Positions 12,224-38,532 of a stretch of 48,500 nucleotides of DNA are shown here, one piece after another; the stretch's first letter is position 1, and every line of letters starts with the position of its first letter. The DNA lies in contig NZ_VZPL01000035.1 of NCBI RefSeq assembly GCF_008801575.1, positions 1 through 48,500 of the forward strand, in the 5' to 3' direction. Source of the stretch: Xanthomonas cissicola (GTDB lineage: Bacteria; Pseudomonadota; Gammaproteobacteria; Xanthomonadales; Xanthomonadaceae). A model generated the notes under the pieces. That model had not been told where the DNA came from, did not search any database, and worked only from the letters and a program-made list of their open reading frames with translations. Position numbers and translations under genes: made by a program.

Positions 12224-13266
12224 TTAGCTGTCTTCCAGCGGGCCGGTGACGCGTTGCGGTTCGTCGATGCCGGCCGGGGCCAGCTCCTTCATCAGGGCCA
12301 GGAAATCGGCGCCGACCAGGCGTTGCGCGCGGCGCAGCAGCATCGGCACCGGGCTGGACGGTTCGTGCCGGGCGTAATAGGCGCAGATCTCTTCCAGCCG
12401 CTGCTTCACATCTCGGGACCGGCGATCTCGTCGTTGCGGCGCGTGGCGTTGGTTGCCGAGGCGACGGCGTGGCCTTCGCCGGCAGTCTGCTCGCCGTCTT
12501 CGGTGATCGCCGAGATGCCCTGCCGTGCTTGCCAGTGCGGCAGCACGAAGCGCTCCAGATCGCGCAGGTCGGTCAGTAGCGGGCGCAAGTCAGGGGCGGC
12601 GGTGCCGACACGTTCGCTCAGCAGCGCATCGATCGCGCGCGCCTGCCGCAGCGCTTCGGTAATGGCATGGGCAGAGGTGGCCAGCGTTTCCGGCGTGCAG
12701 TCCTGGCAGCAGGCTTCGATTTCGGCCAGGCTGGGGCCGCTCTGGCCGTCGGGCAGCTTGATGCTGCCATTGGCCACGCGTAGATCGCGCAGGCTGAAGC
12801 GGCCCAGCCGCGGCGACTGCACGAACGCGGTGGTGCGCAGCGCGCCGAGCAGGCCCATCGGGTCGCTAAGACCGACCAGCGCATTGATGCGCGAGGTCGG
12901 GTCGTTGTCGTCGTCGACATCCAGTTGCGGATGCACGCTGTCCCAATGGCGCTCAAGCAGGCCATGGATCAACGCCAGCGCGTCGGCCCAGCCCGGCAGG
13001 CCGCGCAGGCGCAGCCAGGCGGCGCCGAGCCTGCCGGCCACGCGCAAGTCGCGGCTACGCCGGCACAGGTCCAGCGCCAGCGCCTGTACCTTGTCCCAGT
13101 CCGGTTCTTCGGCGGCGATGACGCTCTCGCCCAGCGCGCGCTCGGCGCGGACCGCCGATTCGCGCTCCAGGCGCAGGAACTCCGGGTCGTATTCCAGATC
13201 CGGTCCGGCCGGGGCGTCGTCGCCGAGCGGCGCCAGCAGGGTCTCCAGGGAACTGTCGTCTTGCAT
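12224..13266 (-). pseudogene. tssA: T6SS cap/baseplate protein TssA (ImpA-type), frameshifted
   Basis: TssA organises T6SS baseplate and sheath assembly. The main frame (13266 to 12406, 286 residues) starts at ATG 13266 behind GGAGG and carries the ImpA N-terminal signature DDAPAGPDLEYDPEFLRLE. It stops after NDEIAGPEM. The conserved C-terminal tail (KQRLEEICAYYARHEPSSPV, then LLRRAQRLVGADFL) continues in another frame to 12224. One extra base near 12418, between GG and TCC, would join them as EIAGSRDVKQRLEE. The total of 1043 bases fits one missing base. In the present sequence the stop overlaps a GTG codon (GTGA), so a separately translated 61-residue tail is conceivable. This could be a true frameshift, a sequencing error or a split gene. 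It lies 49 bp after tpsA. Confidence 0.85.
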
Positions 13267-13315
13267 GGCACGGCCTCCATCGGGGGAGCCGCCGCGGTAA
13301 GCGGCGGCAGGCAGA

Positions 13316-16300
13316 TCACTCGGGGCTGCAGACTGCGTCCGGATCGCCGGCATCGCAGGCCGGCTGCTGGTCGTCGGGCAGACGTAGGCCGGGGCGGACC
13401 AGGCCGAAGGCGCGGTACGGGGTACCGCTGGCCGACAGGTCCACGAAGGCCACGGTGCGGCTGGCCGAACTCTGCGCACGGCCCGCAAACGCCGAGGCCG
13501 GCACATTGAAGCCGGAGGCGCCGGCCAGATCGAGCAGGCTGCCATCGACCGCCGTGGCGTTGAAATACGCCGGCGGCGCGCCGATCGCCGCCACGGTCTG
13601 GGTGCCGGTGCCGGTGCCGGTTACATAGATCGGGTTCTGCTGCGTACCGATCTGGCCGGTGGCGGCAAAGGTGCCGGTGGCGTTGCGCAACGGCGCGCGG
13701 CCGTCCTGGAACAGATTGCCGCGTACCGACAGGAACATCGCGCTGTTGCCGGCATCCACGCTGTAGCTGCTGCCATTGGCCAGCACCAGCAGCAGGTCGC
13801 CGCCGTTGGTGAAGCTGAAGCCGTTGCTGGCGACGAAGTCGCCCAGGCGTACGACACGGTTATCGATGAAGCCGGCCGCATCGCCCAGCGCCACTGGCCC
13901 GCCTGCGCTACCGCTGAGCAGGGTGGCGGTGATCGCGCTGCCGGCGCGCTGGCCGATGCCGGCAGCGGCCTGCAACCAGCTGGTGGCACCGCTGAGCTGG
14001 CCGCTCAGCTGCAATTCGCCGCCGCTGCGCAGGCGCAGCGAGGGGCCGCCGGCGACGCGGCCGCTGACCAGCAATGTGCGGTTGCTGAGCACATCCAGGC
14101 CCTGCGCGCTGAAGTCACCGAGCACATCGATGGCGTTGCCGCTGCCGGTGAGCGCGACCGCCCCGGCGGCGCTGCCGCTGAGCTGACCGGCGCGCAGGTT
14201 GCCGGCGTCCTGGGTGATCGCCCCGCCGCTGCTCAAGGCCACGCTGGCGCCTCCAATGTCGTGACCGAGTACCACGCCGGTGCCGCCGCGCAGGGCGATG
14301 GCGTTGGCGCTGAGCGTGCCGGCGGTAGCGAGCTGACCACCGGCCTGCAGACGCAGGGCATCGCTGGCTTGCGCAGTCGCCGCCAGGTCGTTGCGATCGA
14401 CGATGGCGATGCTGCTGCCGCGCGCCTGCACCGTGCCCTGGAAGTCGTTATCGGCCGCATCCAGCACGATCGCGCCGGTGCCGGCATCGAGCAGGCTGCT
14501 GCCGACCACCGTCAATGCGCCTTGCTGGGCGATGCCGGCAGCGGTGGCCGCAGGCACGGCGATCGCCTGGGCAACGACCGTGCTGGCGTTGGCCGTTGCT
14601 GCACTCCCGCTGCGTGCCACCAGCGCACCGCCGATCCGCCCCTGGCCCAGATCCAGGCCGGCGCCGCTGGCGACCTCCAGTGCATCGACATCCAGGTTGC
14701 CCAGGACCAGCGCATTGCGATCGCGCACGCTGGCCGTGCCGCCGCTCAGGCTCACCGCCGCCTGGAAATCGTTGCCGGCATCGGTCAATGCAATGGCGGC
14801 GCCACCGCTATCGATGCGGGCACTGCCGGTAACGGTCAAGGCGCCGCTCTGGGTGACGGCGCCGCCGTTGCTGGCCGCATCCAGATCGCCATTGACCAGG
14901 CCAACGCCCAGATTCAGCGCACTGCCGTTGCGGACCTGCAGGTCGCCGGTGTTGAGCGTGCCCAGGGTCAAGGCATTGGCATCGCGCACACTGCTTGCAC
15001 CGCCGGTCAGGGCGAGCACGCCCTGGAAGTCGTTGCCCGCCGCCTCCAGGGCAATGGCGCCGCCGCCGGCATCGACCGCGGTGTCGCCTGCGACCAGCAA
15101 TGCGCCGCCGGTCTGGGTGATGGCGGCATTGGTGCTGTTCAAGCGCAGCGCGTTGCTTGCCGTGACCGTGTTGCTCAGCGCAATGCCGCTGGCGCCGGTC
15201 AATTGCACCGTGCCACCGCGCAACGCGCCGGCAGTGCGCAAGGTGCCGCCGTTGGCTGTCAGCGTCAGCGCGCCGGTGCCGGCGTCGATCTGGCTGGCCG
15301 GCAGGTTCAAGTCACCGCCCGCGACCAGCGCGATCGCCGCGTTGGCACCGCTGCGCACCGCAGCGATGCTGAGGTCGTTGCGATCCTGCACGGCGATGGC
15401 ATTGCCGGTGAGCGCAACCGCGCCGACGAAGTCGTTGTCGGCATCGGTCAAGGCGATGTCGCCGCTGCCGGCATTCAACGTGGATGCACCGCCGACCGAC
15501 AACCCGCCGCTCTGGGTGATCGCTGCATTGCCGCTGGTGCCGTTCAACGCGCCACGCACCACACCGCGACCGAGATTCAATGCGCCACTGCTGTTGGCGA
15601 TGAGTGCATTGGTGGACAGCGTGCCGAAACCGAGTACGTTGCCGGCGATCTGCACATCGCCTGCCGTGAGATTGACCACGCCGTTGAAGGTGTTGCCCGC
15701 GATGTTGAGCGTGACGTCGCCACTGCCTGCATTGACGGTGGTGGTGGTGCCAACGTTGAGTGCCGCGGCGGTCTGCGTGATCGCGGTGTTGTTGCTGCTC
15801 AGCGATAGCGCGTCGGTGGTGGTGATGGTGTGGCCGATGGTGAGACCGTCGCGTGCGGACAGGGTCACGTTACGGCCGCGTAAGTCGCCGCCGGTGCTCA
15901 TGCTGCCGCCGTTGGCGATCAGGGCAAGATCGGCGGTGCCGGTGTCCAGGTTCTGCGCGGACAGATTCAGTGCGCCGCCGGCGGTCAACGCGATGGTGCC
16001 GTTGGCGCCGGCATTCAAGGCATTGATGGTGAGGTTGCCGCTATCGGCCACCGTGATGCCGGTGCCGGTGAGACTGATGCCAGCGCCAAAGCGGTTGCTG
16101 CCACCGTTGAGCGCGATGCTGGCGCTACCGGCATCGACGGTGCTGGCACCCACCACGGCGAGTGCGCCGGCGTTCTGCGCGATGGCGGCATTGGTGCTGC
16201 GCAGGGCGAGCGTGTTGGCGGTGACGGTGTGGCCGAGCGTCAGGCCGTCGCGTCCGAACAGCGTCACGTCGTTGCCACCCAGGTCTGCGGCCGTGCTCAG

Positions 16301-19300
16301 TGCGCCGCCGTTCGATGACAGGGTCAGGTTGCTGTTGCCGACCGCGATAGCCTGCGACGGCAGGCTCAAGGTACCGCCGGCCGTCACGACGACCGCGCCA
16401 TTGCCGGTGCTGGTCAGTGCGGCGAGGCTGAGGTTGTCGCCGTCGGTCACGCCAATGCCGTTGCCGGTCAGGCGCACGCTGTCGAAGTTATTGCCGGCTT
16501 GCAGCAACGAAATCGCACCCGTGCCTGCATCGACCGTGGTGGCGCCGCTGACCAGCAGTGCGCCGCCGCTTTGCGTAATCGCGGCATTGCTGCTGGCAAG
16601 CGACAATGTGCGCGCGGTGATGTTCTGGCCCAAGGTCAAGCCGCTGTTGGCGCGCAGGCTCACTTCGTCGCCAAGCAACGCTGCGGACAGGCTCAGGTGG
16701 TTGGCGATCAGATCGATGTTGCCGCTGCCGTTGTTCAACGTCGTGCCTGGCAGGGCCAGATTGCCGCCCGCGGTCAGCGCGATCGTGCCGCCGTTGTTGC
16801 TGGTCAACGTCGAGAGCGTGAGATCGTTGCTGTCGCGCACCGCGATGCCGGCACCGGTCAGGCGCATGGCGCCCTGGAAATCGTTGCTGCCATCGGTCAG
16901 CGCAATGGCGCCGCTGCCGGCATTGAGGGTGGCGGCAGCATCGACGATCAGTCCGCCGGACTGGCCGATGGCGCCATTGCCGCTGCTCGCAGCAAGCGTG
17001 CCGGCAACGCGACCGCTACCCAGGTTCAATGCACCATTGCTGGTCGCGGTGAGGCTGCCGGTGTTCAGCGTGCCCAGCGTCAAGGCGCCGCTGTCGCGGA
17101 TCGACACATCGTTGCCGGTCAGACTCACTGCGCCGCCGAAGTGATTACCGGCGCTGCCCAACGCGATCGCGCCGGAGCCGGCGTTGACGCTGGAGGTCGA
17201 ACCGATACGCAAGGCGCCTGCGGTCTGGTTGATCGCGCCGTTGCTGGTGGACACCGACAACGTGCTGCTGTCGATGCCGGTCGCCAGCGTCAGTGCGTTG
17301 GCGCTGAACAGCGAGACCGCATTGCCGACGAGATCGCCGCCCAGTGTCAGCGTGCCGTTTTCTGCGCGCAGCGTCAGGTCATCGCTGCTGGTCAATCCGC
17401 TGCCAGGCAGCGTGAGCGAGTTGCCTGCGGTGAGCGCGATGGTGCCGGCGCCACCGTTGGTGAGCGAGACCACGCTGAGATCGTTCGCATCGACCACGGC
17501 GATATTGCGACCGGTCAGTGCAAGGCCGTTCTTGAAATCGTTATCGCCTGTCAGCGAAATGGCGCCACTGCCGGCATCGACGGTAGCAAGACCGCCGACG
17601 TCGAGCACTCCTGCATTCTGGAAGATCGCGTTGGTGGTGGCAGTCAGGCCCAAGCTGCCACTGGCGGTGACGTTGTGATTGAGCACCACGCCATCGCGCG
17701 CGCTCAGGCTGACGTTGCCACCGCTCAAGCTGCCGTTCGTGCTCAATGCACCGCCATTGGCGATCAGGCTGAGCGCGCCAGTGCCGGTGCTGAGGTTTTG
17801 CGTGGGCAGCGTGAGTGCGCCACCGGCGGTCAGGGCGATGGCGCCATTGGTGCCGTTGCTGATCGAGGAGACGCGCAGGTCGTCACGATCGACCACGCTG
17901 ATGCCGGTGCCGGTCAGACTCACGTCGCTGCGGAAATTGTTGTTGCCTTCGGTCAGCGCGATGACGCCGCTGCCGGCGTTGAGGATGGCCGTGCCATCGA
18001 CGATCAGTCCGGCGCTCTGACTGATGGCGCCGTTGCCACTGGTCGCAGCAAGCGTGCCGCGGACGCTGCCGCTGCCCAGGTTCAACGCACCGTTGCTCGT
18101 GGCGATGAGGTTGCCGGTATTCAGCGCACCCAGCGTCAGCGCGCCAGTGTCGGCGATGCGGGTGTCGCCTCCGGTCAGCGTCACCACGCCCTGAAAATCG
18201 TTGGTCGCTTCGTCCAGTTCGATGACGCCGGTTCCGGCACTGACGGTGCTGGTGCCGGTGGCGGTCACGCTGCCGCCGGTCTGGGTGATTGCGCTGTCGG
18301 TCGTGGTCAGTGCCAGCGTGCCGCTTGCAGTGACGTCATGCCCCAGAGTCATGCCGGCAGTGCCGGTGAGGTCCACGTTCGTGCCGGCCAACGTGGCGCG
18401 CGTGGTGAGGCTGCCGCCGCTGGACAGGGTGAGGTTGGCGCTGCCGGTGTTGATCGCCGCTGCCGGCAGGGTCAATGCACCGGTGGCACGCAGCGACAGT
18501 GCGCTGTTGTTGCCAAGGCTCAAGGTGCCGATCGACAGAGTGCCGGCAGCGTTCAACGAGATACCGCGCCCGGTCGCGCTGACCAGATCGCCAAAGATAT
18601 TGCCACTGTTGTTCAGCGTGATCGCACCGGTGCCGACCGTGAGGTCGCTGGTGCCGACGATGGTCAAGCCATCGGTTCCCGACTGCGTGATCGCGCCGTT
18701 GTTGCTGGTGGCGAGCAACGCACCGCCCACCCGGCCGCTGCCCAGGTTCAACGCGCCGTTGCTGGTGGCGGTGAGATCGTTGCTGTTCACCGCACCCAAG
18801 GTCAGTGCGCCGCTGTCGCTGATGCGTGTGTTGCCGCCGGTCAGCGCCACCGCACCCTGGAAGTCGTTGCTCGCACCGTCCAGCGTGATGGCGCCGGTTC
18901 CGGCATTGATGGTGCTGGTGCCGGTGGCGGCCACGCTGCCGGCGGTTTGGGTGATCGCAGCATTGGTGGCGGTCAATTTCAGCGTGCCGGTCGCAGTGAC
19001 GTCGTGCGCCAGCGCGATGCCGCCGCGACCGGTGAGGTCCACGTTCGTCCCGGCCAACGCAGCGCGCGTGGTGAGGCCACCGCCGCTGGCCAGGGTGAGG
19101 TTATTGCTGCCGGTGTTGATCGCCGTTGTCGGTAACGTCAATGCACCGGTGGCACTTAACGACAGCGCGCTGTTGCTATCGAGGTTCAACGTGCCGATCG
19201 AGAGATTGCCTGCCGCGTTCACGGCAATGCCGTTGCCGCTGGCGCTCAACAGGCCACCGAAGGTATTGCCGCCGTTGGTCAACGAAAGCGCACTGCCGGA

Positions 19301-20449
19301 CTGCAGGAACTGGCTGGTGCCCGTCACCGCCAGCGAACCGGATTGGGACAACGCGACCGTGTTGGTCAGGCTGAGGTTGCCGCCTACGTCCAGGTTGCCG
19401 AGGCTGCCGATCTTGTTGGCCCCGCTGAAGGTGGCACTGCCACCGATAAAGCCACCCAGGCTGCCGGCGGTGTAGATGCCGGTCTGCTGTACGCCGCGAC
19501 CGGTGCTAAGGGTGATGGCCCCGGTGCCGGCATCGATGCTGCCGCCGCCGGCGACATCGAAGCTGCCAGCGCCGGAGGCGATCAGCGACACGCTGCCGTC
19601 GGGACCAGTGGACAGCGACGACGCACGAATGGTGCCGCTGTTGTTGATGAGTCGATCGAAGATGCCTTGCGCCGCGCGCGCCTGCAGCTGGATCGCGCCG
19701 CCTGGCGCGCTCAGGGTGCCGGAATTGTCCACCGCTTCGGTGGCCAGACTCAGCTGCAGCGGCTTGTCGATCAGCACGCCGAAGCCGCCGCTTTCGAACG
19801 TCAGCGTGGCTGCGTCGGCACCGGCGAGGGTGATGTTGCCGGCGGTGGCGGTGATGGTGCCGCTGTTGGCGACCCGGCCGCCGATCAGCGTGGCCGACCC
19901 GGCCGCCGCATTGATGGTGCCGCTGTTGGAGACCAGCGCCACGGTATTGCCGCCGGCGTCGAAGACGTAGTTGCCGTTCATGAACTGGGACACGCTGGTG
20001 CCCAGCGTACTGACCACCAGGCCACCGACATTGATGTTGGCGGTGCTTCCGAGCAGCACACCGTTGCTGTTGAGCAGGAACACCTGCCCGTTGGCAGTGA
20101 GGTTGCCGAAGATCTGTGTGGGGTTGCCCCCCTGCACCAGGTTGAGTACCACCGAGGTGGTCGTTGGCTGGTTGAAGGTCATCGTCGCGGCCGAGCCGAT
20201 GTCGAACGCCGACCAGGTCAGCGCCATGCGCGAGGAGGTCTGGTCGACAACCCGGGTCGTGCCGCTGGCAGCGTTGATGGTGCCGGTGCCGCCGACGATG
20301 CTGCCGCCGGTGGGCAGCTGGTTGGCCGCCACCTGGGCCAGGCCGCTGACCGGCATGGCCATCAGCGCAGCTGCTAGCGCGAGGGCCAGCGGGCGATGAC
20401 GCAACGGGAGCGTGCGCGGCGAGGTCGCGGGATGGATGGTGGCGTGCAT
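13316..20449 (-). CDS. TpsA-type filamentous haemagglutinin-like exoprotein
   Basis: This 2377-residue exoprotein belongs to a two-partner (type Vb) secretion system. The ATG at 20449 is 11 bases after the tpsB stop; its GAGGG ribosome site touches that stop. A long signal peptide ends near GLAQVAANQ. The TPS domain follows, with TFNQPTTTSVVLNLVQGG, NPTQIFGNLTANGQVF and NSNGVLLG, as in FhaB/HMW proteins. Residues of about 380-2200 are Gly/Ala/Asn/Leu/Thr-rich beta-helix repeats with recurring units such as NDFQGAV-LTG, ALTLGTLNTG and AITQSGG. No C-terminal toxin is seen. The last 20 residues contain a CX8C pair (ACDAGDPDAVCSPE), recalling the surface-tethering loop of HMW1. A role in adhesion or biofilm is likely. 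Confidence 0.93.
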   Translation of the reverse strand: MHATIHPATSPRTLPLRHRPLALALAAALMAMPVSGLAQVAANQLPTGGSIVGGTGTINAASGTTRVVDQTSSRMALTWSAFDIGSAATMTFNQPTTTSVVLNLVQGGNPTQIFGNLTANGQVFLLNSNGVLLGSTANINVGGLVVSTLGTSVSQFMNGNYVFDAGGNTVALVSNSGTINAAAGSATLIGGRVANSGTITATAGNITLAGADAATLTFESGGFGVLIDKPLQLSLATEAVDNSGTLSAPGGAIQLQARAAQGIFDRLINNSGTIRASSLSTGPDGSVSLIASGAGSFDVAGGGSIDAGTGAITLSTGRGVQQTGIYTAGSLGGFIGGSATFSGANKIGSLGNLDVGGNLSLTNTVALSQSGSLAVTGTSQFLQSGSALSLTNGGNTFGGLLSASGNGIAVNAAGNLSIGTLNLDSNSALSLSATGALTLPTTAINTGSNNLTLASGGGLTTRAALAGTNVDLTGRGGIALAHDVTATGTLKLTATNAAITQTAGSVAATGTSTINAGTGAITLDGASNDFQGAVALTGGNTRISDSGALTLGAVNSNDLTATSNGALNLGSGRVGGALLATSNNGAITQSGTDGLTIVGTSDLTVGTGAITLNNSGNIFGDLVSATGRGISLNAAGTLSIGTLSLGNNSALSLRATGALTLPAAAINTGSANLTLSSGGSLTTRATLAGTNVDLTGTAGMTLGHDVTASGTLALTTTDSAITQTGGSVTATGTSTVSAGTGVIELDEATNDFQGVVTLTGGDTRIADTGALTLGALNTGNLIATSNGALNLGSGSVRGTLAATSGNGAISQSAGLIVDGTAILNAGSGVIALTEGNNNFRSDVSLTGTGISVVDRDDLRVSSISNGTNGAIALTAGGALTLPTQNLSTGTGALSLIANGGALSTNGSLSGGNVSLSARDGVVLNHNVTASGSLGLTATTNAIFQNAGVLDVGGLATVDAGSGAISLTGDNDFKNGLALTGRNIAVVDANDLSVVSLTNGGAGTIALTAGNSLTLPGSGLTSSDDLTLRAENGTLTLGGDLVGNAVSLFSANALTLATGIDSSTLSVSTSNGAINQTAGALRIGSTSSVNAGSGAIALGSAGNHFGGAVSLTGNDVSIRDSGALTLGTLNTGSLTATSNGALNLGSGRVAGTLAASSGNGAIGQSGGLIVDAAATLNAGSGAIALTDGSNDFQGAMRLTGAGIAVRDSNDLTLSTLTSNNGGTIALTAGGNLALPGTTLNNGSGNIDLIANHLSLSAALLGDEVSLRANSGLTLGQNITARTLSLASSNAAITQSGGALLVSGATTVDAGTGAISLLQAGNNFDSVRLTGNGIGVTDGDNLSLAALTSTGNGAVVVTAGGTLSLPSQAIAVGNSNLTLSSNGGALSTAADLGGNDVTLFGRDGLTLGHTVTANTLALRSTNAAIAQNAGALAVVGASTVDAGSASIALNGGSNRFGAGISLTGTGITVADSGNLTINALNAGANGTIALTAGGALNLSAQNLDTGTADLALIANGGSMSTGGDLRGRNVTLSARDGLTIGHTITTTDALSLSSNNTAITQTAAALNVGTTTTVNAGSGDVTLNIAGNTFNGVVNLTAGDVQIAGNVLGFGTLSTNALIANSSGALNLGRGVVRGALNGTSGNAAITQSGGLSVGGASTLNAGSGDIALTDADNDFVGAVALTGNAIAVQDRNDLSIAAVRSGANAAIALVAGGDLNLPASQIDAGTGALTLTANGGTLRTAGALRGGTVQLTGASGIALSNTVTASNALRLNSTNAAITQTGGALLVAGDTAVDAGGGAIALEAAGNDFQGVLALTGGASSVRDANALTLGTLNTGDLQVRNGSALNLGVGLVNGDLDAASNGGAVTQSGALTVTGSARIDSGGAAIALTDAGNDFQAAVSLSGGTASVRDRNALVLGNLDVDALEVASGAGLDLGQGRIGGALVARSGSAATANASTVVAQAIAVPAATAAGIAQQGALTVVGSSLLDAGTGAIVLDAADNDFQGTVQARGSSIAIVDRNDLAATAQASDALRLQAGGQLATAGTLSANAIALRGGTGVVLGHDIGGASVALSSGGAITQDAGNLRAGQLSGSAAGAVALTGSGNAIDVLGDFSAQGLDVLSNRTLLVSGRVAGGPSLRLRSGGELQLSGQLSGATSWLQAAAGIGQRAGSAITATLLSGSAGGPVALGDAAGFIDNRVVRLGDFVASNGFSFTNGGDLLLVLANGSSYSVDAGNSAMFLSVRGNLFQDGRAPLRNATGTFAATGQIGTQQNPIYVTGTGTGTQTVAAIGAPPAYFNATAVDGSLLDLAGASGFNVPASAFAGRAQSSASRTVAFVDLSASGTPYRAFGLVRPGLRLPDDQQPACDAGDPDAVCSPE
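17934..19265 (-). repeat. 666-bp tandem super-repeat inside tpsA
   Basis: Two adjacent copies (about 18600-19265 and 17934-18599) line up with an offset of 666 bp (222 codons). For example, the GTCAATGCAC block occurs at 18471 and again at 19137. In protein both copies run through ALTLP, INTGS, LAGTNVDLTG, HDVTA, ATGTST, NDFQG, ATSNGALNLGSG. The copies are diverged but clearly related. The in-frame period implies duplication of a beta-helix segment. Boundaries are approximate. Confidence 0.75.
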
Positions 20450-20460
20450 GCGCAGATCCC

Positions 20461-22143
20461 TCAAAAAGTGAAGCCGAAACGCGTGTAGATGCGGGCGTCG
20501 TCGCGTCCGTCGGAGGCATTGCGCGCGCCGGTCGGAAGCGCGGCGCTGATGCGCCATTCGAAATTGGCGTACTGCGGCAAGCGGAAGGTCAGGCCCACGC
20601 CGGCGGCATCGAAACTGGCCGGTGCCAGGCGGCCATTGGCGGCGAACACGCGGGCGTGGTCGGCGAAGACATCCAGCTCCACCAATTCGCGCCAGGGCCG
20701 GCCATTGAACGGCGATGCGGCATCGGCAAAACCGGGGGCGTCGATGTGGTATTCAAGCGCGGTGTAATACCCGCGGTCGCCCAATGCATCGGAGACCGGA
20801 TAGGCGCGCACGCTGTCCGGCCCACCGACAGCGAACTGCTCCATCGGGGTCAGCGTATCGTCGCTGTATTGGCCGTTGAACTTGAAGTACAGCCGCTGCG
20901 TGCGGGTGAGGTATTGCAGGCGCGTGTAGGCCAGCCGCGCGATGGTGAAATAGCTGTCGCGACCGGGGCTGATCTGGTCCACCGGCGCCGAGCGGTCGCG
21001 CAAGGATTGGCGCACGCTCACCTGCAGCAGATCCACACCGCGCCAGCGCAGATCGGTGCGCCGCAACGACAGGCCCAGTTCGGCGACATCGAACTGCTGG
21101 TCGGACAACTGCATGCCCAGCGCACTGAGCTTGGATTGCTCGCGCAGATAGCGCGCCGAGCCCTGCAACTGCAGCGTTTGGCTGTTGATGAATTTCCAGT
21201 CGGCGCCGGTGTAGACGATGGAGGTCGGCCCCTTCAGGCCAAGCCGGGCGAACACGCCGTTGCGCACTTCCAGCTCGCTGCGGCTGGCGCCGATCACCGC
21301 GCTCAGGCCGGACACGCTACCGATCGGCAAGCCATACGACAGCGCGCCGATCTGGCTCTGCTGCGGCGCCAGCGAATAGGCGTAGTTGGCGGCGAACACG
21401 TCGCCCAGGCCGAGCGGGCTATTCCAGGTAATGCCGGCCTGGGCGCGATAGCGGCCGGTCAGCTCGGTGCCGTAGTTGTTGCCGCCCAGGGTGATCACAT
21501 ATGGGCGGGCGGCCTCGCTGGCGACCAGCACCACGTCGGTCTCGCCTTCCTTCTGGCCGGGCTGCAATACCGACGACACCGACACCCCGGGCAGATCGCG
21601 CGCATACAGCAGCGCGGCGTCCACGTCCTGCTTGCGCAGCGGGCGGCCCTGCAGCTGGCGCAGCGGTGCCGACAAGGCGTTGCCGCGGTAGCGTGCGGCG
21701 CCCTGCACGCTGATCTGGCCGATGCGCCCTTCCAGCACGCGGATCTCGATCAGTTGATCGGGCCCCGGCGTCTGCGCCGGCAGATAGGCCGTGCTGACGA
21801 TGAAGCCGGCCTGGCGATAGGCGCGGGTGATGGCATCGGCCACCGCCTGGAGCTGGTCGAAGCGCAACGCCACCACCGGCTGGCCCTGGGCCAGCTCGGC
21901 GAAGGCAGCGTCGGCCACGGCCTGCATGCGGGGCGGGTCGATGCCGGCCTCCGGGTAGTGGCCCACATCGCGCACGCGAAAGCCGCGCACCTGCAGGGTG
22001 ACCGCATCGGTCCGGTCCTTCATGGCCGGCACCGCCGCTGCGGACTGCGCAGCAGCCGTGGCATCGGTCGGCGATTGCGCCCACGCGGGTGCGGCCAGCT
22101 GAAGGCACGCGGACACCGCCGCGGCCAGACACGTCATACGCAT
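20461..22143 (-). CDS. TpsB-type outer-membrane transporter (ShlB/FhaC/HecB family)
   Basis: The predicted product has 560 residues. After a signal peptide (residues 1-22, ending PAWAQ) comes a POTRA region, about 50-210, with IEIRVLEGRIGQISVQGAAR. The 16-strand barrel follows. AVGGPDSVRAYP corresponds to the conserved loop motif (VRGY in most members, VRAY here), and the chain ends in FGFTF with the terminal Phe of outer-membrane barrels. It should export the TpsA protein encoded 11 bp downstream. AGGGGAAA precedes the ATG at 22143. The start lies 10 bp inside the end of the upstream membrane-protein frame, so the pair is physically linked to the T6SS run. Confidence 0.93.
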   Translation of the reverse strand: MRMTCLAAAVSACLQLAAPAWAQSPTDATAAAQSAAAVPAMKDRTDAVTLQVRGFRVRDVGHYPEAGIDPPRMQAVADAAFAELAQGQPVVALRFDQLQAVADAITRAYRQAGFIVSTAYLPAQTPGPDQLIEIRVLEGRIGQISVQGAARYRGNALSAPLRQLQGRPLRKQDVDAALLYARDLPGVSVSSVLQPGQKEGETDVVLVASEAARPYVITLGGNNYGTELTGRYRAQAGITWNSPLGLGDVFAANYAYSLAPQQSQIGALSYGLPIGSVSGLSAVIGASRSELEVRNGVFARLGLKGPTSIVYTGADWKFINSQTLQLQGSARYLREQSKLSALGMQLSDQQFDVAELGLSLRRTDLRWRGVDLLQVSVRQSLRDRSAPVDQISPGRDSYFTIARLAYTRLQYLTRTQRLYFKFNGQYSDDTLTPMEQFAVGGPDSVRAYPVSDALGDRGYYTALEYHIDAPGFADAASPFNGRPWRELVELDVFADHARVFAANGRLAPASFDAAGVGLTFRLPQYANFEWRISAALPTGARNASDGRDDARIYTRFGFTF

Positions 22144-22595
22144 ACGTCCATTTCCCCTGAGACCATCCGTTGTTGCGCATGGCCGACGTGTCCCGCTGCA
22201 TAGACAGGCGCCACAGTGGCCACTGCACAGCGGGTGGCGTGTCTGACCTCGCCACTTGCTGAACGTCGATCAAACCCTGACGTACATTTATGCAATGTTA
22301 GCAAGATTATTGCGATGGTCATCACAATTACGAAGACTGCGACCACCTGACTGCGCAGTTTGCGTGTGACCCGATACCCCGAAAGCGGGCTCGTCCGAGC
22401 ATCAGACGAACTCGGCAAGGCGTTGCGCAGGGTCACCCCCTGGGTCTGCCGGGCGGCGTCCAGCACGCGCCGACGGCGTGCGCGGTATTGCTCGCGGTCG
22501 AGTTGGCCCTGCTGATGGGCCAGCGCCAGCGCCTGCAGCTGCGCATTGGCCGGGTGCGCAGCTGCAGCGGTGGGCGACGGCGGGGTAGCGCTCAT
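22134..22595 (-). CDS. Small predicted membrane protein linking ppkA to tpsB
   Basis: This 153-residue frame starts at an ATG that overlaps the ppkA stop (ATGA at 22595-22592), implying translational coupling. Residues of about 15-50 (ALALAHQQGQLDREQYRARR) look like a short SHOCT-like helical oligomerisation motif. Residues of about 84-103 (VVAVFVIVMTIAIILLTLHK) form one membrane helix. The stretch after it reads less like protein, and the true product may rely mainly on the first 105 residues. The frame ends 10 bp inside tpsB. Function is unknown; position suggests an accessory to the kinase or the export machinery. Confidence 0.65.
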   Translation of the reverse strand: MSATPPSPTAAAAHPANAQLQALALAHQQGQLDREQYRARRRRVLDAARQTQGVTLRNALPSSSDARTSPLSGYRVTRKLRSQVVAVFVIVMTIAIILLTLHKCTSGFDRRSASGEVRHATRCAVATVAPVYAAGHVGHAQQRMVSGEMDVCV

Positions 22596-25500
22596 GGCAG
22601 CTCCCGCAGCACGCGCAGGCCCACGTCCGGTTGCGCCGAGCCGTTGTCGGCACGGCTGGCCTGCACCGTGCAATCGGACCAGTAGCTGGAAAAACTTCCG
22701 CCGCGCGCCTGCACGCCTGTTCCGGTCGACACCCACTCCCAGACATTGCCGGTGAGATTGATCAGGCCCCAGGGATTGGCATCGCGTCCGCGCGCCGACA
22801 CCGGTGCGCGCGCAGCATCGCCAGCGCTGGCGTTGGGCGGCACGCAATTGCTGTCTTCGGCCTGCCGCCAGTTGCTGGCCGCCTGCGCGGCATGCAGCCA
22901 TTCGGCATCGCTGGGCAGGCGGTAACGCCAGCCGCCGCTGCCGATGGTGAGCCAGCGCAGATAGGCCTGCGCCAGGGTCAGGCTGATGTTGCGCACCGGC
23001 GCGCGCGCCAGTTCCGGGGTGGCGGCGGCCTGGGCGGTGCAGCGGCCGGTGGCCTGGCAGAACAGGTTGAAATCGGCCACCGCCACTTCGCCGCGCGACA
23101 ACGCATACGGCTTGCCGCCGGCGATGGCCGGGATCACCACCAGCATCGGCGCGCGGGTCTGCCCGAGTGTGTCGAAGCACGCCGCACCACGCCCGGCCAG
23201 GCCAGCGCAGGGATCCGGGCCGGTGGGCACCGGCGGCAGGCTGTCGGCATCGTCCACGTTGGCGGGCAATGCCGCAGCGGTGGAGGGGTCGCGCGCAGTG
23301 GTCGGGGTGGCGGCGGCAGGCCTGGCAGCGGATTTGTCGCGCGCCGGTTTTGCGCCGACGGCAGGCGTAGCTGTCCCGGTGGCGCTGCCTGGCGGCACGC
23401 TGTCGTCGGCCGGCGCATCGGCGGCGGGCGCGCGTTGCAGACGCGCCGACAACGAGCCTTCCGGCAATTGGCCGGCCGCCTTCATCTGCGCCTCCAATTG
23501 CGCCAGCGCGGTGGCATCGGTTCGATAGAGCGTCTGCAGGCGCCCGGCGAGTTGCTGGCGTTCGCTGGGCGGCAGCGCGCCAGCAGTCATCACTGCGGCG
23601 GCCACCGCATAACGGGTTTGCGCGCTGCGCAGTTCGGCGCGCTGGCCGAGCGTCTGCAACCCTTGCCTCAGCAGGTCGACCGCCTGGGCGTATCGCCCCT
23701 GTGCGAACGCATCGCCGGCGGCATTGCGATACACCTGCGAGAGCAGTTGCGGGCCTTCGCTGCGCAACAGCGGATGGCCCGGTTGCAGTGTGCGAATGCG
23801 CGCCAGTGCGTCGCGGGTCTTGCCCAGATCGTTGGCGGCGGCGGCGCGGCGCAGCGATTCGATCCGCGCGGCCAGTTCGGCCTCGGCGCTTTCGCGTGCC
23901 AGCGCTTGTTCGAACTGGTGCTCCAGCGTCTGCAGGCGCATGCGCTGGGCCAGCAGGCTGGCCGATCGCGGGGCCAGGCCCAGGCCGAAATCCACCAGCG
24001 CCTGCGCGCCAGCCAGCTGTGCGGGGTCGCTTTGTGCGGCGACCGCCGTGCTGATGGCCTCGGCCAGCGCGCTGCCCTGGCTGCTGCGCTCGGCCGCCGG
24101 CAGTGCGGCCAGTTCGGCGTCGATGCGCGCGCGCCAGGCAGGGTCGGTACTGGGGTTTGCCAGATCGGCAGCCAGCGCCGTGCGTGCGCTGTCCGCATCG
24201 CGCGGCGTGGCGGCAACCGGTGTACGTCTGACTTGCTGCTCGGCCACGCCGACCTCGGCGCTGCGCAACTGCAGGCGCAACGAGTCCGGGAAGGCTGCGC
24301 GCGCCTGTTCTACTTCGGTCCGCGCGGTGGTGAGTTGCCCGGCGGCCACCGCCTCGGCGATGGCCGCGTCCAGCCGTACTTCGAGCGCGGAATGGCGCAG
24401 CAGGCTGCTGCCCGGATCGATGCGTCGCACCTGATCGAGCGTGGCCAGCGCGTTGTCGGGCTGGGTGCGGAACAACAGCCCGGCATCGAGCTGGCGGTTG
24501 AGCGTGGTGTCGAGCGCGTTGAGGCGTTGGTTCTTTTCGCGTTCGATGGCCTGGCGGCGCGCATCCAGCGCGGGCGAATACAGCCGCAGCCGGTCGCGCA
24601 AGGCGAACACCTGCAACGCGCCGCGGTAATCGTCGCGGCCGTTGGCCGGATTCCACAGCGCGTCCAGGCGGCGCAGCAGGAAATCTTCGATGAGGTCGCT
24701 GCGGTCCATCAGCACGCGTCGGCGGTCGTCTGCGCTCAGGCTGGACAGCGCCTGCATGGCCTGGGTTTCGTCGCGGTAGTGCTGCGGGTCCTGCGCACCG
24801 AAGCGCGCGATGACCTCATCCAGATGGCGTTGATGCAGATAACGCGATGCGCCCCACCCGCCCACGCCCACCAATGCGAGTGCGGTGGCACCATAGCCGA
24901 TCATTGGCAGCGCGCGCTCGCGCAGCGGCACCTGGCGCAGGCCGTCGAGCAACTGGTCCACGCGCGTGAGCCGCTGCGCAGCCGGGAACGCTACGGCCGC
25001 GCACAAGGTGGCGTACTGGCGACGGGTCAGGCCCGGCACCGGCCGCGGGCGGCGGCCTTCGCGCAGCGCCACTTCGGCGCTGAGTTTGTCGAACGGGTGC
25101 TTGCCGGTCAGCAATTCGAAACACACGCAGCCCAGCGCGTACAGATCGTCGGCCGGTGTGGGCGCTTGGCCGCGAATCATTTCCAGGCTGGCATAGGCCG
25201 GCGTCAATGCGCCCAGCGTTGCCGCATCGAACACGGTTTGTTCGCCCGCCACCTCGGCCGCATGTTTGCCGGCGCGCGCAATGCCGAAGTCGAACACCTT
25301 GGCCACGTCATCGCGGGTGACCATGACGTTGCCGGGCTTGAAATCCGAATGCACGATGCCGGCCGCGTGCGCGCGCATCAGCGCGCGGCCCATCCCATCG
25401 ATCAGCGGCCAGGCCTGCTTGAGCGGCATGCCGTTGTAGGCCTGCTCGCGGATCAGCGTTTTCAGATCGCAACCGTCGATGTATTCCATGGTGATGAAGA

Positions 25501-26305
25501 CCAGGGTGCGATCCTTGTCGAAGTCGTACACGCGCACGATGTTGTCGTGCGCCAGTTTCTGCGAGCGGCGCGCTTCGCGCTGCAATGCGACCAGTGCGTC
25601 GGGATGGCGGCGGAATTCGTCGCTGAGCACTTTGACCGCCAGCCACGGGTCGCGGTCGCGCGCTTCCACCTTGCGTTCGTCGCGCGCCAGATACACCACG
25701 CCCATGCCGCCGCGGCCGAGTTCGCGTTCGAGCTGGAAGCGGCCCTTGAGCAGGCTGCCGACACCGGCATGATCGCCGCCGGCTGCTTCGGCCAGGTGCT
25801 GCCAGCTGGACAGGCTGGCGGTACCGGCCGTGCCAGTGCCAGTGCCAGTGCCAGTGCCGGTCTGCGTGCCGAGGTTGGGGTGCGTGGCCAGCCCCAGGCT
25901 GGTGAGGCTGGGTGCATCACCGGACACGGGCTGCGCCGGTTGCACGCGGGTGATGTCGTTTTCGGCCATGCGCGCCGGGCCCGGTTGTGGCATCACCACC
26001 GTGGCATCGTCGTCGACCACGGTTGGCGTGGGCGTTGGCTCCTGCGCTGCCGATGGCGCAGGCGCAGGCGCAATCGCAGGCGCGCGATCGCGCAACGCAT
26101 CCAGCCGGCTCACCAGGGTGGTCACGGTGGCATCGTCGAGCAGGTGCTGGCGTTGCAGCGTCCACAGCGTTTCCACCCCGGCGCGGTATTCGGCCTCCGG
26201 CACTGCAGCGCGCCTGCCCAGCGCGGCCAGGACCGCGTTGAGGTCGAGTGCGCCGCGGCGCATGGCGGTGACCAATTCGGTCACGGTGGCGGTGTCTTCG
26301 TGCAT
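22592..26305 (-). CDS. ppkA: T6SS Ser/Thr kinase PpkA (TagE) with a C-terminal FGE/SUMF1-like domain
   Basis: The predicted product has 1237 residues. Residues 1-185 form a helical head and an Ala/Pro/Thr linker that includes a Gly-Thr repeat. The kinase domain spans about 190-455: glycine loop GRGGMG (197-202), Lys225 in LAVKVL, catalytic loop HSDFKPGN (319-326, Ser in place of the usual Arg) and DFG (339-341). A membrane helix lies near 467-488. A long helical, probably periplasmic region follows. The last 230 or so residues resemble formylglycine-generating/sulfatase-modifying proteins (YRLPSDAEWLHAA, NLTGNVWEWV, ARGGSFSSYW). PpkA phosphorylates T6SS components such as the FHA protein to promote assembly, opposed by PppA encoded just upstream. 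The start is 4 bp after the pppA stop, with GGAG upstream. Confidence 0.92.
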   Translation of the reverse strand: MHEDTATVTELVTAMRRGALDLNAVLAALGRRAAVPEAEYRAGVETLWTLQRQHLLDDATVTTLVSRLDALRDRAPAIAPAPAPSAAQEPTPTPTVVDDDATVVMPQPGPARMAENDITRVQPAQPVSGDAPSLTSLGLATHPNLGTQTGTGTGTGTGTAGTASLSSWQHLAEAAGGDHAGVGSLLKGRFQLERELGRGGMGVVYLARDERKVEARDRDPWLAVKVLSDEFRRHPDALVALQREARRSQKLAHDNIVRVYDFDKDRTLVFITMEYIDGCDLKTLIREQAYNGMPLKQAWPLIDGMGRALMRAHAAGIVHSDFKPGNVMVTRDDVAKVFDFGIARAGKHAAEVAGEQTVFDAATLGALTPAYASLEMIRGQAPTPADDLYALGCVCFELLTGKHPFDKLSAEVALREGRRPRPVPGLTRRQYATLCAAVAFPAAQRLTRVDQLLDGLRQVPLRERALPMIGYGATALALVGVGGWGASRYLHQRHLDEVIARFGAQDPQHYRDETQAMQALSSLSADDRRRVLMDRSDLIEDFLLRRLDALWNPANGRDDYRGALQVFALRDRLRLYSPALDARRQAIEREKNQRLNALDTTLNRQLDAGLLFRTQPDNALATLDQVRRIDPGSSLLRHSALEVRLDAAIAEAVAAGQLTTARTEVEQARAAFPDSLRLQLRSAEVGVAEQQVRRTPVAATPRDADSARTALAADLANPSTDPAWRARIDAELAALPAAERSSQGSALAEAISTAVAAQSDPAQLAGAQALVDFGLGLAPRSASLLAQRMRLQTLEHQFEQALARESAEAELAARIESLRRAAAANDLGKTRDALARIRTLQPGHPLLRSEGPQLLSQVYRNAAGDAFAQGRYAQAVDLLRQGLQTLGQRAELRSAQTRYAVAAAVMTAGALPPSERQQLAGRLQTLYRTDATALAQLEAQMKAAGQLPEGSLSARLQRAPAADAPADDSVPPGSATGTATPAVGAKPARDKSAARPAAATPTTARDPSTAAALPANVDDADSLPPVPTGPDPCAGLAGRGAACFDTLGQTRAPMLVVIPAIAGGKPYALSRGEVAVADFNLFCQATGRCTAQAAATPELARAPVRNISLTLAQAYLRWLTIGSGGWRYRLPSDAEWLHAAQAASNWRQAEDSNCVPPNASAGDAARAPVSARGRDANPWGLINLTGNVWEWVSTGTGVQARGGSFSSYWSDCTVQASRADNGSAQPDVGLRVLRELP
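25831..25860 (-). repeat. Hexanucleotide microsatellite in the ppkA linker
   Basis: Five tandem 6-bp units (TGCCAG on the plus strand, the last reading TGCCGG) encode the Gly-Thr run at about residues 149-159 of PpkA. Copy changes stay in frame and would only alter linker length between the N-terminal head and the kinase domain. Confidence 0.85.
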
Positions 26306-26309
26306 GCAC

Positions 26310-27026
26310 TTACTCCTGCAGGCGGACGACGACGGCGGTGACGTTGTCGCGTGCCGCCCTCCCCATCGCCAACTCGAACAGACGCGCCAGCAGCGCGCGC
26401 GGATCGCCGAAGCGATGGCATTCGGCATCCAGTTCCGGGTCTGGGATTTCCTTGTTGATGCCGTCGCTGCACAACAGGAATTGCGTGCCCGGCAGGCTCG
26501 GCGTCAGCACCCAATCGACGAACAGCGGCTCCTGCGCGCCGACCGCGCGCGTGAGCACGCCGGCCGCCGCAGCACTGGCCTGCGCACCGCCAAACTGGGT
26601 GATGTCCTCGCGCACGCCATGCACGTGGTCGCGTGTGAGCTGACGCAGCGGGCCGCCGTGTTGCGCATAGATGCGGCTGTCGCCGACCCAGCCGCACAGC
26701 ATGAAATCCGGGTCGTGCACCAGCACCACTACGGTGGTGGCGATCATGTCCACACGGCGCTCGCGCGCGACCTGCAGCAGCTCGCGGTTGATCTGCGCCA
26801 GGGTGTCGTCGATGGCATCCAGGAAATCGCATAGGTCGGCCTGGCGCACCAACGCCCTCAGCCGCTGCACCAGCAACTGGCTGGCGTAGTCGCCGGCACT
26901 GTGGCCACCCAGGCCATCGGCCACCACCCACAGCCCGGCGTCTTCGCGCAGCAGCAAGGCATCTTCGTTGAGACGGCGCACCTTGCCGGTTTCGGTGTGC
27001 CCGGCCGATTGGTAGGGCGCGTTCAT
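26310..27026 (-). CDS. pppA: T6SS PP2C-family protein phosphatase PppA
   Basis: This 238-residue PP2C phosphatase starts at ATG 27026, which overlaps the tagF stop (ATGA). Metal-binding and core motifs are present: GKVRRLNEDALLL, VADGLGGHSAGDYA, CGWVGDSRIY, LLCSDGINKEI and ARDNVTAVVV. PppA removes the phosphate placed by PpkA and so switches T6SS assembly off. It lies directly upstream of ppkA, 4 bp apart. The protein is cytoplasmic, and I see no missing catalytic residue. Confidence 0.96.
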   Translation of the reverse strand: MNAPYQSAGHTETGKVRRLNEDALLLREDAGLWVVADGLGGHSAGDYASQLLVQRLRALVRQADLCDFLDAIDDTLAQINRELLQVARERRVDMIATTVVVLVHDPDFMLCGWVGDSRIYAQHGGPLRQLTRDHVHGVREDITQFGGAQASAAAAGVLTRAVGAQEPLFVDWVLTPSLPGTQFLLCSDGINKEIPDPELDAECHRFGDPRALLARLFELAMGRAARDNVTAVVVRLQE

Positions 27027-27598
27027 CGGGTCACCTCGGTGGTGTCCTGCTCGGCCAGCAACCAATCCAGATACGTCTCTGCAGGGGGCAGCCCATGCAT
27101 TGCCTGTGCGGCCGCACCGAGTCGCCACCACCACGATTCGCCGTGCACCGGTGCGTACGTGCTGGAAGGCGCGGCCGGCACGCCGAGCGCAAGCAGCGCC
27201 GCATCGAATCCGGCTGCATCGGTGCGCGCGCGCAAGCTGCGGCCCAGGCACGCAGCCACCGCGCCGAACCATGCCGCCGGCGGCAGGCACATGTGCGGCA
27301 AGGGCATCGCCACGGTCAGCGGAAAACAGCGCCCCACGCGGTCTTCGCCCGGGCCGAGCATGCCGGCCCAGGCCTGCGCCCCGCACACGCCCGGCCCCAA
27401 CGCAAACGCGCGCAGACCGCTGTTGCGATACGCGCCAGGCCAGTGCTGCCCGAGCTGCTGGCGCACCGTGTCCAGGCAGTTGGCGAAGTGCAGGTCCCAC
27501 GGCTGCACGAAGCTGGCCGGCAGGCGCCGCTGCACGAAGTCGCCCACGCCAGGCAACTTGCCGTGGAAGCCGAGTGGTTCGTGCGCCGGCATGCTCAT
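27023..27598 (-). CDS. tagF: T6SS-associated protein TagF
   Basis: The predicted product has 191 residues, with the family signature at the N-terminus (GFHGKLPGVGDFVQRRLPAS, then VQPWDLHF) and a conserved GESWWWRL near residue 150. TagF is a post-translational repressor of T6SS in other bacteria, acting independently of or alongside PpkA/PppA. The start ATG at 27598 overlaps the tssM stop (ATGA at 27598-27595), and a second in-frame ATG follows two codons later. Unlike fused TagF-PppA proteins in some species, the two are separate here. Confidence 0.95.
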   Translation of the reverse strand: MSMPAHEPLGFHGKLPGVGDFVQRRLPASFVQPWDLHFANCLDTVRQQLGQHWPGAYRNSGLRAFALGPGVCGAQAWAGMLGPGEDRVGRCFPLTVAMPLPHMCLPPAAWFGAVAACLGRSLRARTDAAGFDAALLALGVPAAPSSTYAPVHGESWWWRLGAAAQAMHGLPPAETYLDWLLAEQDTTEVTR

Positions 27599-38382: not shown

Positions 38383-38532
38383 CGAAGCATCCACAGGTGA
38401 TGGGGCAACGCACGTTGCGCTGACCGACGGCGCTGTGTTGCGTACCTGCACGTGCAACGGCAGGCGGCTCGGGCACGGCAACCGTCACGCACATGCTCAC
38501 ATGCGTGCGTGCGGCAAAGTCGACATTTCGTC

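What the first reader, a model, noticed from the sequence alone, without database searches (positions are those of the whole stretch)
12224..26305. Two-partner secretion system embedded in the T6SS run
ppkA, a small membrane protein, tpsB, tpsA and tssA follow one another with an ATGA overlap, a 10-bp overlap, and gaps of 11 and 49 bp. A giant FHA-like exoprotein and its transporter therefore seem to share a transcript with T6SS control genes and TssA. A contact-dependent weapon and a large adhesin could be made together, so that adhesion holds the target while the T6SS fires. The small membrane protein between them is unexplained.
Basis: partly seen in the sequence, partly recalled or inferred. 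Interest (0 to 1): 0.7.

Follow-up and report, generated by a model that had tools for sequence, protein, structure and literature searches.

The report
Anchored adhesin wired to T6SS kinase
In Xanthomonas and its relatives the genes for a giant surface protein and its exporter lie just downstream of the control kinase of one kind of bacterial stabbing machine (the type VI secretion system), in all 43 genomes found with a close version of that kinase, so the surface protein likely serves as the machine's contact arm or contact sensor.

Summary
The arrangement is not local. Among 397 genomes of the order, 43 carry a close PpkA and all 43 have tpsB downstream within 2.8 kb; nine with a more distant PpkA have none. 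The small protein overlaps ppkA in 36 of 36 loci and also follows PpkA in 8 of 8 TPS-less clusters read, so it belongs to PpkA. All 30 readable TpsA C-ends keep a cysteine pair like the HMW1/HxuA anchor, so TpsA is probably tethered. Outside the order, 6 of 12 nearest TpsB relatives lie beside a PpkA-like kinase and PP2C, four in genomes with no detected TssK; 0 of 14 remote TPS loci do. This ties TPS to the kinase rather than to the T6SS tube. I favour an anchored contact module feeding PpkA; function is untested. That X. citri has hemagglutinin/hemolysin genes flanked by T6SS genes is in print; the order-wide link and the kinase-TPS module I did not find there.

The parts
22592..26305 (-). 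ppkA: Ser/Thr kinase domain (res 190-408) and C-terminal FGE-sulfatase domain (res 1065-1234), 1237 aa
   Evidence: Pfam PF00069 E=1e-34, PF03781 E=3e-16
22134..22595 (-). smp: 153-aa small protein, SHOCT-like helical hairpin (res 15-57) plus one membrane helix (~84-102); 4-nt overlap with ppkA, 10-nt overlap with tpsB
   Evidence: SHOCT match is below the Pfam cut-off
20461..22143 (-). tpsB: outer-membrane transporter, POTRA_2 + ShlB, 560 aa
   Evidence: Pfam; profile match to CdiB structures 6wim/6wil
13316..20449 (-). tpsA: FHA-like exoprotein, TPS secretion domain and 15 matched DUF5649 stretches, 2377 aa, only two Cys (2365, 2374)
   Evidence: Pfam PF05860, PF18886; NCBIfam TIGR01901; Cys positions
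13316..13357 (-). TpsA C-terminal tail with the Cys-X8-Cys pair, predicted disulfide anchor
   Evidence: both Cys columns invariant in 30 of 30 readable C-ends; coordinates computed from residue numbers
13288..13308 (-). perfect G+C hairpin in the tpsA-tssA gap, no T-run; possible processing or attenuation site
   Evidence: by eye a comparable hairpin in 13 of 13 Xanthomonas loci compared and, with another sequence, 3 of 3 of the X. bonasiae group
12406..13266 (-). tssA, frame interrupted at 12406; conserved C-terminal segment continues in another frame to 12224
   Evidence: TIGR03363 E=3e-72; 286 aa here against 343-351 aa in 17 of 17 relatives
26310..27062 (-). pppA: PP2C phosphatase
   Evidence: Pfam
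27023..27598 (-). tagF: T6SS-associated (TagF N-terminal domain)
   Evidence: Pfam PF09867; coordinates from the frame
27595..31320 (-). tssM
   Evidence: Pfam IcmF domains
34266..35582 (-). fha, with T6SS FHA C-terminal domain
   Evidence: Pfam PF00498, PF20232
42956..43570 (-). ECF sigma factor, candidate EcfK (not compared with the X. citri sequence), next to a kinase-TPR frame (40458-43733)
   Evidence: Pfam; EcfK/PknS role in X. citri from PMC13147305 passages

Best explanation
The tpsB-tpsA pair is a conserved, predicted surface-anchored exoprotein module that likely works together with the kinase PpkA as the contact arm and sensor of one subtype of type VI secretion system. Shown by sequence: constant gene order; smp overlapping ppkA; TPS downstream of smp; the invariant cysteine pair near the C-end of TpsA; and the recurrence of TPS beside PpkA-like kinase + PP2C genes in other families of the class, some with no detected TssK. 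Inferred: TpsB exports TpsA as a beta-solenoid fibre whose C-terminal disulfide knot stays in the periplasm and locks it in the TpsB pore, as described for HMW1 and HxuA. The anchored complex would sit over the predicted periplasmic FGE-like domain of PpkA. Target contact would then locally raise PpkA activity, phosphorylate Fha and start T6SS assembly at the site of adhesion, with the small SHOCT-like membrane protein as a PpkA partner at the inner membrane. Adhesion and sensing would be two sides of the same contact.
For: 43 of 43 genomes with a close PpkA have tpsB downstream on the same strand within 2.8 kb. PpkA and TpsB distances correlate (r=0.965, n=36). smp overlaps ppkA in 36 of 36 loci, and a look-alike follows PpkA in 8 of 8 TPS-less clusters read (judged by eye). 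Cys pair in 30 of 30 readable TpsA C-ends; the anchor of HMW1/HxuA is described in PMC5422565 (passages). Outside the order, a kinase (50-54% identical to the PpkA kinase domain) and a PP2C lie in the stretch around 6 of 12 of the nearest TpsB relatives, against 0 of 14 remote TPS loci and 0 of 7 free-standing siblings. TssK is undetected in four of those six genomes (G729, G589, G558, G669). Precedents read as passages: TagQ-TagR feed PpkA from the outer membrane in P. aeruginosa (PMC6657622, PMC11881912); TssW, an outer-membrane protein encoded beside ppkA, binds PpkA and places the T6SS in A. citrulli (PMC12607579).
Against: No experiment links TpsA to T6SS activity. The line between 'close' PpkA (47% or more) and the nine TPS-less ones (40-46%, shorter matches) was drawn after seeing the result; a tree sets the TPS-less ones apart. 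The Cys pair is also present in 6 of 6 free-standing sibling TpsA proteins read, so anchoring is a trait of the TPS clade and not T6SS-specific. PpkA clusters without TPS exist, and G303 keeps TPS with no PpkA or TssK hit. In 15 of 18 Rhodanobacteraceae-like loci 440-1451 nt separate smp from tpsB, so one transcript is not universal. Distance correlation is also expected from shared vertical descent. Six of the 12 outside loci show no kinase, though four of these stretches are short contigs. The 14 control loci come from the window's own family, not from the families of the six hits. TPS in those modules is divergent or at the far end of the cluster, so the link there could be co-regulation. 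The tail of the TpsA model is unstructured (pLDDT <50) and Foldseek gave no hit at E<=0.001. The PpkA membrane helix scores low (max 1.46), so its topology is by homology.
Confidence: 0.45

Rival explanations
1. Grip only: TpsA is an adhesin that holds the target so that an independently controlled T6SS can hit it; no signal passes from TpsA to PpkA.
For: FHA-type TPS domain and repeats, predicted surface anchor, fixed place among T6SS genes.
Against: Does not explain why TPS recurs beside PpkA-like kinase + PP2C genes where no TssK is detected.
Confidence: 0.28
2. Shared regulation only: TpsA is a biofilm or host-surface adhesin that is expressed with the T6SS (for example under EcfK/PknS) but plays no part in T6SS action.
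For: A candidate EcfK lies upstream in the window. The Xanthomonas adhesin XacFhaB acts in attachment and biofilm (PMC2632755, passages). G303 keeps TPS with no TssK hit.
Against: Linkage is far wider than Xanthomonas, and EcfK/PknS are reported absent from the most similar Dyella clusters (PMC6653060). Among T6SS genes the constant neighbour is the kinase gene.
Confidence: 0.2
3. Positional hitch-hiking: TPS was inserted once between smp and tssA and has stayed by inertia without any functional tie.
For: One related clade without TPS; the tpsA frame ends early in 4 of 38 loci, one of them a complete chromosome (G027, G012, G032, G432).
Against: TPS present in 43 of 43 close PpkA loci although TpsB has fallen to about 50% identity; cysteine pair invariant in readable C-ends; separate kinase-TPS modules outside the order.
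Confidence: 0.05

Closest known systems
X. citri anti-amoeba T6SS (XAC4116 PpkA, XAC4117 PppA, XAC4127 PknS, XAC4128 EcfK)
   Same: By the names given in the passages read, the same gene set: XAC4114 is a ShlB-type TpsB (PMC2632755), and XAC4112-4125 is a hemagglutinin/hemolysin region flanked by T6SS genes (PMC6797930). The X. citri sequences were not compared here.
   Different: In the passages read, the T6SS is counted from XAC4116 (PMC3071791), and the Xanthomonadales survey names only one 'adhesin' among predicted effectors (PMC6653060). Order-wide linkage, anchor and the small protein are not discussed there.
HMW1/HMW1B and HxuA/HxuB anchored two-partner secretion (Haemophilus)
   Same: TPS domain, TpsB, C-terminal Cys pair of TpsA (anchor described in PMC5422565).
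   Different: No kinase or T6SS tie is mentioned in the passages read; here the knot is inferred from sequence only.
TagQRST-PpkA sensing module of P. aeruginosa H1-T6SS
   Same: Envelope input to PpkA-Fha-PppA; an outer-membrane protein takes part in the signal (PMC6657622, PMC11881912).
   Different: TagQ is a lipoprotein and TagR a separate periplasmic protein; here an FGE-like domain is fused to PpkA and the outer-membrane partner would be TpsB/TpsA. That TagR itself is FGE-like is recalled, not tested.
TssW-PpkA-Fha axis of Acidovorax citrulli
   Same: Outer-membrane protein encoded next to ppkA that binds PpkA and positions the T6SS (PMC12607579).
   Different: TssW is encoded between ppkA and fha; sequence similarity to TpsB or TpsA was not tested; no TPS is mentioned in the passages read.
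CdiB/CdiA contact-dependent inhibition
   Same: TpsB matches CdiB structures.
   Different: TpsA ends in a cysteine tail and no toxin domain was found by Pfam; tssA follows, not an immunity gene.

Membership tests
Two-partner secretion (type Vb) | TpsB with POTRA and ShlB/FhaC barrel | tested here: met
   PF08479 E=6e-9, PF03865 E=2e-29
Two-partner secretion (type Vb) | TpsA with N-terminal TPS domain encoded next to TpsB | tested here: met
   PF05860 E=5e-26, TIGR01901 E=1e-22; 11-nt gap
Two-partner secretion (type Vb) | TpsA is exported by this TpsB | not testable with these tools
   inferred from adjacency
HMW1/HxuA-type anchored TpsA | C-terminal Cys pair | tested here: met
   invariant in 30 of 30 readable C-ends, within the last 28 residues or so
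HMW1/HxuA-type anchored TpsA | disulfide-locked tail retained in the TpsB pore | not testable with these tools
   model tail is low-confidence
CDI (CdiBA) | C-terminal toxin domain and immunity gene downstream | tested here: not met
   no toxin family found by Pfam; tssA follows tpsA
T6SS with threonine-phosphorylation control (group 3) | PpkA, PppA, Fha, TagF together with T6SS core genes | tested here: met
   PpkA, PppA, TagF, Fha, TssA, TssK, TssL, TssM, VgrG, PAAR; TssB/C/E/F/G/H, Hcp and TssJ were not named among the frames scanned, and the contig ends at 48500; group assignment follows PMC6653060
TagQRST-type sensing | TagQ, TagS and TagT genes | tested here: inconclusive
   none named by Pfam among the frames scanned; not every small frame was scanned and the contig ends at 48500
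SHOCT domain protein | SHOCT motif above the family cut-off | tested here: not met
   window small protein 15.0 bits against cut-off 27; some relatives are annotated SHOCT or DUF1707; hairpin in the model

The most novel reading that the evidence does not exclude
TpsB/TpsA is the extracellular receptor half of a transmembrane signalling unit whose inner half is a PpkA-type kinase with an FGE-like sensor domain and a SHOCT-like partner. The unit predates or is independent of T6SS in some gammaproteobacteria, and in Xanthomonadales its output is T6SS assembly at the point of fibre contact: a giant adhesin as the trigger of a T6SS.
Probability: 0.3. Interest if true: 0.88.

Novelty: new variant of a known kind. 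Interest (0 to 1): 0.62.

Why it matters
How a T6SS recognises that a target is in reach is a long-open question; to my recollection few envelope inputs to PpkA are known outside P. aeruginosa TagQRST. A conserved anchored adhesin beside PpkA, and the same pairing in genomes with no detected TssK, offers a concrete, removable candidate for that input, testable in harmless relatives. It also joins two secretion systems usually annotated apart: in the table read (PMC3071791) the X. citri T6SS is counted from ppkA on, which leaves the TPS genes just outside it.

Tried and rejected
CDI toxin system: rejected, no toxin domain found and tssA follows tpsA. Small protein as a TPS chaperone or third partner: rejected, it overlaps ppkA in 36 of 36 loci and a look-alike is present in 8 of 8 TPS-less clusters read. 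Cysteine pair as a T6SS-specific mark: rejected, 6 of 6 free-standing siblings read have one. Solved-structure match for the TpsA C-end: no hit at E<=0.001; the HxuA and FHA secretion domains appear only at E 0.8-9. Tandem DNA repeats in tpsA: one short array only. The extra ~370-aa ORF after tpsA in Rhodanobacteraceae-like loci: no Pfam or NCBIfam match in the two examples scanned. Outside-order survey by PpkA was not run; only TpsB was used.
Full report
Anatomy. The operon runs on the minus strand. Pfam and NCBIfam name PppA (26310-27062), PpkA (22592-26305; kinase plus C-terminal FGE-sulfatase), TpsB (20461-22143; POTRA_2, ShlB), TpsA (13316-20449; TPS domain, 15 matched DUF5649 stretches) and TssA. 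A 153-aa small membrane protein (22134-22595) lies between PpkA and TpsB. Upstream lie TagF, TssM, TssL, TssK, Fha, a DUF6931 gene, VgrG, PAAR, a kinase-TPR frame and an ECF sigma factor. TssB, C, E, F, G, H and Hcp were not named among the frames scanned; the window is a whole contig that ends at 48500. The tssA frame stops at 12406; 17 of 17 relatives read have 343-351 aa instead of 286. The vgrG frame is also broken near 37.7-37.85 kb. Both may be draft errors (314 contigs) or real; intact tssA copies exist in relatives.

Conservation in the genus. A TpsB at 81-100% identity is present in 15 of 35 same-genus genomes: 13 in one piece, G011 and G014 in two pieces. A 44-residue remnant occurs in G008; the other 19 have only matches of about 25-29% or none. 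The order ppkA-smp-tpsB-tpsA was read in 14 of 14 loci, and tssA follows in 13 of 13 not cut by a contig end. Named holders include X. euvesicatoria, X. phaseoli, X. maliensis, X. floridensis, X. cucurbitae, X. melonis, X. dyei, X. codiaei and X. bonasiae. The tpsB-tpsA gap is 11 nt in 17 of 17 Xanthomonas and X. bonasiae-group loci. In X. phaseoli (G027, a complete chromosome) the ppkA and tpsA frames end early, and tpsA also in G012, G032 and, outside the genus, G432.

Conservation in the order. With TpsB as query, 51 of 397 genomes match at E<=1e-60. With the PpkA C-terminal 349 aa, 52 of 397 match at E<=1e-25. Put together, 43 of 52 PpkA loci have tpsB downstream on the same strand, 427-2732 bp from the end of the PpkA match. 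All 43 are at least 47% identical in PpkA; the 9 without TPS are 40-46% identical over a shorter stretch and fall in one genus. That cut was drawn after seeing the result. Nine TpsB places have no PpkA: G303, five free-standing siblings in another Xanthomonas-like genus (G182, G040, G117, G091 and a second copy in G164), G493, G086, G190. The midpoint-rooted PpkA tree sets the TPS-less loci apart (7 of them in the tree, support 1.0), and PpkA-TpsB and TssA-TpsB distances correlate (r=0.965, n=36; r=0.945, n=26; 0 of 2000 permutations each), as vertical co-descent would also give. In the Rhodanobacteraceae-like loci (relatives named Dyella, Rhodanobacter and Frateuria) tpsB is 440-1451 nt from smp in 15 of 18, tpsA is followed by an unnamed ~370-aa ORF in 11 of 16, and tssA is convergent in 9 of 16 clear cases (which includes G303 and G370). 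So the single tight run is a feature of Xanthomonas and a few others, while the neighbourhood is order-wide.

The small protein. It starts at a 4-nt ATGA or GTGA overlap with ppkA in 36 of 36 loci (of 37 with PpkA; G027 was dropped because its PpkA frame ends early). A membrane helix is predicted in 35 of 36. In 27 aligned sequences L20, L23, A26, G30, Y37, R38, R40-R42 and L45 are invariant. The AlphaFold model shows a helical hairpin and one long helix, at modest confidence (pLDDT 68). A look-alike with the same EYRxRRR stretch follows PpkA in 8 of 8 TPS-less clusters fetched (of 9), judged by eye; there tssA is convergent. It is therefore a PpkA/T6SS accessory and not a TPS component. Relatives named by sources in the 120 of 226 hits listed are Dyella, Rhodanobacter, Frateuria and Xanthomonas, some annotated SHOCT or DUF1707.

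The exoprotein. TpsA in the window has two cysteines in 2377 aa, at 2365 and 2374. The pair is invariant in 30 of 30 readable C-ends (29 next to PpkA, plus G303), spaced by 6-9 residues and within about the last 28 residues. Eight of the 38 loci could not be read to the end: four because the frame ends early, four because the stretch or contig ends. The model gives a confident beta-rich domain to about residue 270 of 330, then an unstructured tail. A review describes the HMW1 and HxuA C-termini as a disulfide-closed loop kept in the periplasm that locks TpsA in TpsB (PMC5422565, passages). The same pair is found in 6 of 6 free-standing siblings read, so the anchor is a trait of this TPS clade.

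Kinase-TPS modules outside the order. In 369 genomes of the class, 12 outside the order have a TpsB match at E<=1e-50 (28-35% identity). One stretch was fetched for each. In 6 of 12 a kinase 50-54% identical to the PpkA kinase domain and a PP2C lie in the same stretch. Four of the six negatives are stretches of 6-14 kb on short contigs. The same test gave 0 of 14 remote TPS loci (14 of the weaker places, from the window's own family; two of them short stretches) and 0 of 7 free-standing siblings. In four of the six the kinase also carries an FGE-like region. A protein with a SHOCT match follows the kinase in G589 (23.6 bits, below the cut-off of 27) and G669 (27.4 bits, fused to another FGE domain), and a similar-looking frame without a Pfam match in G729. 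A cyclase-FHA gene is nearby in G729 and G669. TssK (the only T6SS family searched) was not detected in G729, G589, G558 (75% complete) or G669; it is in the locus itself in G601 and on another contig in G909. G601 is a T6SS cluster (Fha, TssK, TssL, TssM, a TagF-like frame judged by eye, PppA, PpkA) with tpsBA divergent beside fha. In the midpoint-rooted kinase tree these kinases fall outside the Xanthomonadales PpkA group. Polarity is open: TPS may have been lost in the TPS-less clade or gained in the other.

The tpsA-tssA gap holds a perfect G+C hairpin (13288-13308) with no T-run. By eye on RNA folds, a comparable hairpin is seen in 13 of 13 Xanthomonas loci and, with another sequence, in 3 of 3 of the X. 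bonasiae group, but not in G062 and G370. It could let tssA be expressed differently from the long tpsA message.

Literature, with what was seen. PMC6797930 (passages) states that the XAC4112-XAC4125 hemagglutinin/hemolysin region is flanked on both sides by T6SS genes. PMC2632755 (passages) names XAC4114 a ShlB-type transporter. PMC13147305 (passages) gives XAC4116 as PpkA and the EcfK/PknS control of this T6SS. PMC6653060 (passages and part of one section) surveys Xanthomonadales T6SS without the words hemagglutinin or two-partner in its main text and lists one 'adhesin' among predicted effectors. PMC3071791 (passages) counts this T6SS from XAC4116. Searches (18 of 18 papers listed; 20 of 67; 10 of 44; 20 of 27; none) listed no paper that, by title or start of abstract, describes a TPS-T6SS or TPS-kinase unit. 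The library lacks many subscription papers; the 2018 X. citri T6SS study cited in these papers was not seen.

Mechanism and verdict. The data show a deep, specific association of an anchored-type TPS with PpkA-type kinases. I infer that the exoprotein makes contact and that contact is passed to the kinase, which in Xanthomonadales would control T6SS. Function remains untested, and the TPS-less clade shows that PpkA clusters persist without it.

Noticed in passing
window 36414-38481 (-): vgrG reading frame is broken near 37.7-37.85 kb; the two halves of the GPD domain are in different frames.
   Followed up: partly
L199, L200, L202, L205, L206: TPS pairs beside PP2C and a PpkA-like kinase (FGE region in four of the five, SHOCT-like protein in some) in five families of the class; no TssK detected in four of the five genomes.
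   Followed up: partly
L157 2367-3464, L167 1266-2375 and other Rhodanobacteraceae-like loci: A ~370-aa ORF with no Pfam or NCBIfam match follows tpsA, before a convergent tssA.
   Followed up: partly
L162 (G303): TPS pair of the T6SS-linked clade kept with no PpkA or TssK found in the genome.
   Followed up: partly
L017 (G008): tpsB reduced to its last ~40 residues beside a tpsA start; no PpkA match in the genome, although a TssK is present elsewhere.
   Followed up: partly
L075 (X. phaseoli, complete chromosome), L086 (X. codiaei), L078 (Leaf148): The tpsA frame ends early while the conserved C-end follows further on; in X. phaseoli ppkA ends early too.
   Followed up: no
window 35869-36417 (-): A DUF6931 gene lies between vgrG and fha in the T6SS run.
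   Followed up: no
window 43769-48348 (+): A second ECF sigma factor, FecR and a TonB-dependent receptor adjoin the T6SS run on the other strand.
   Followed up: no
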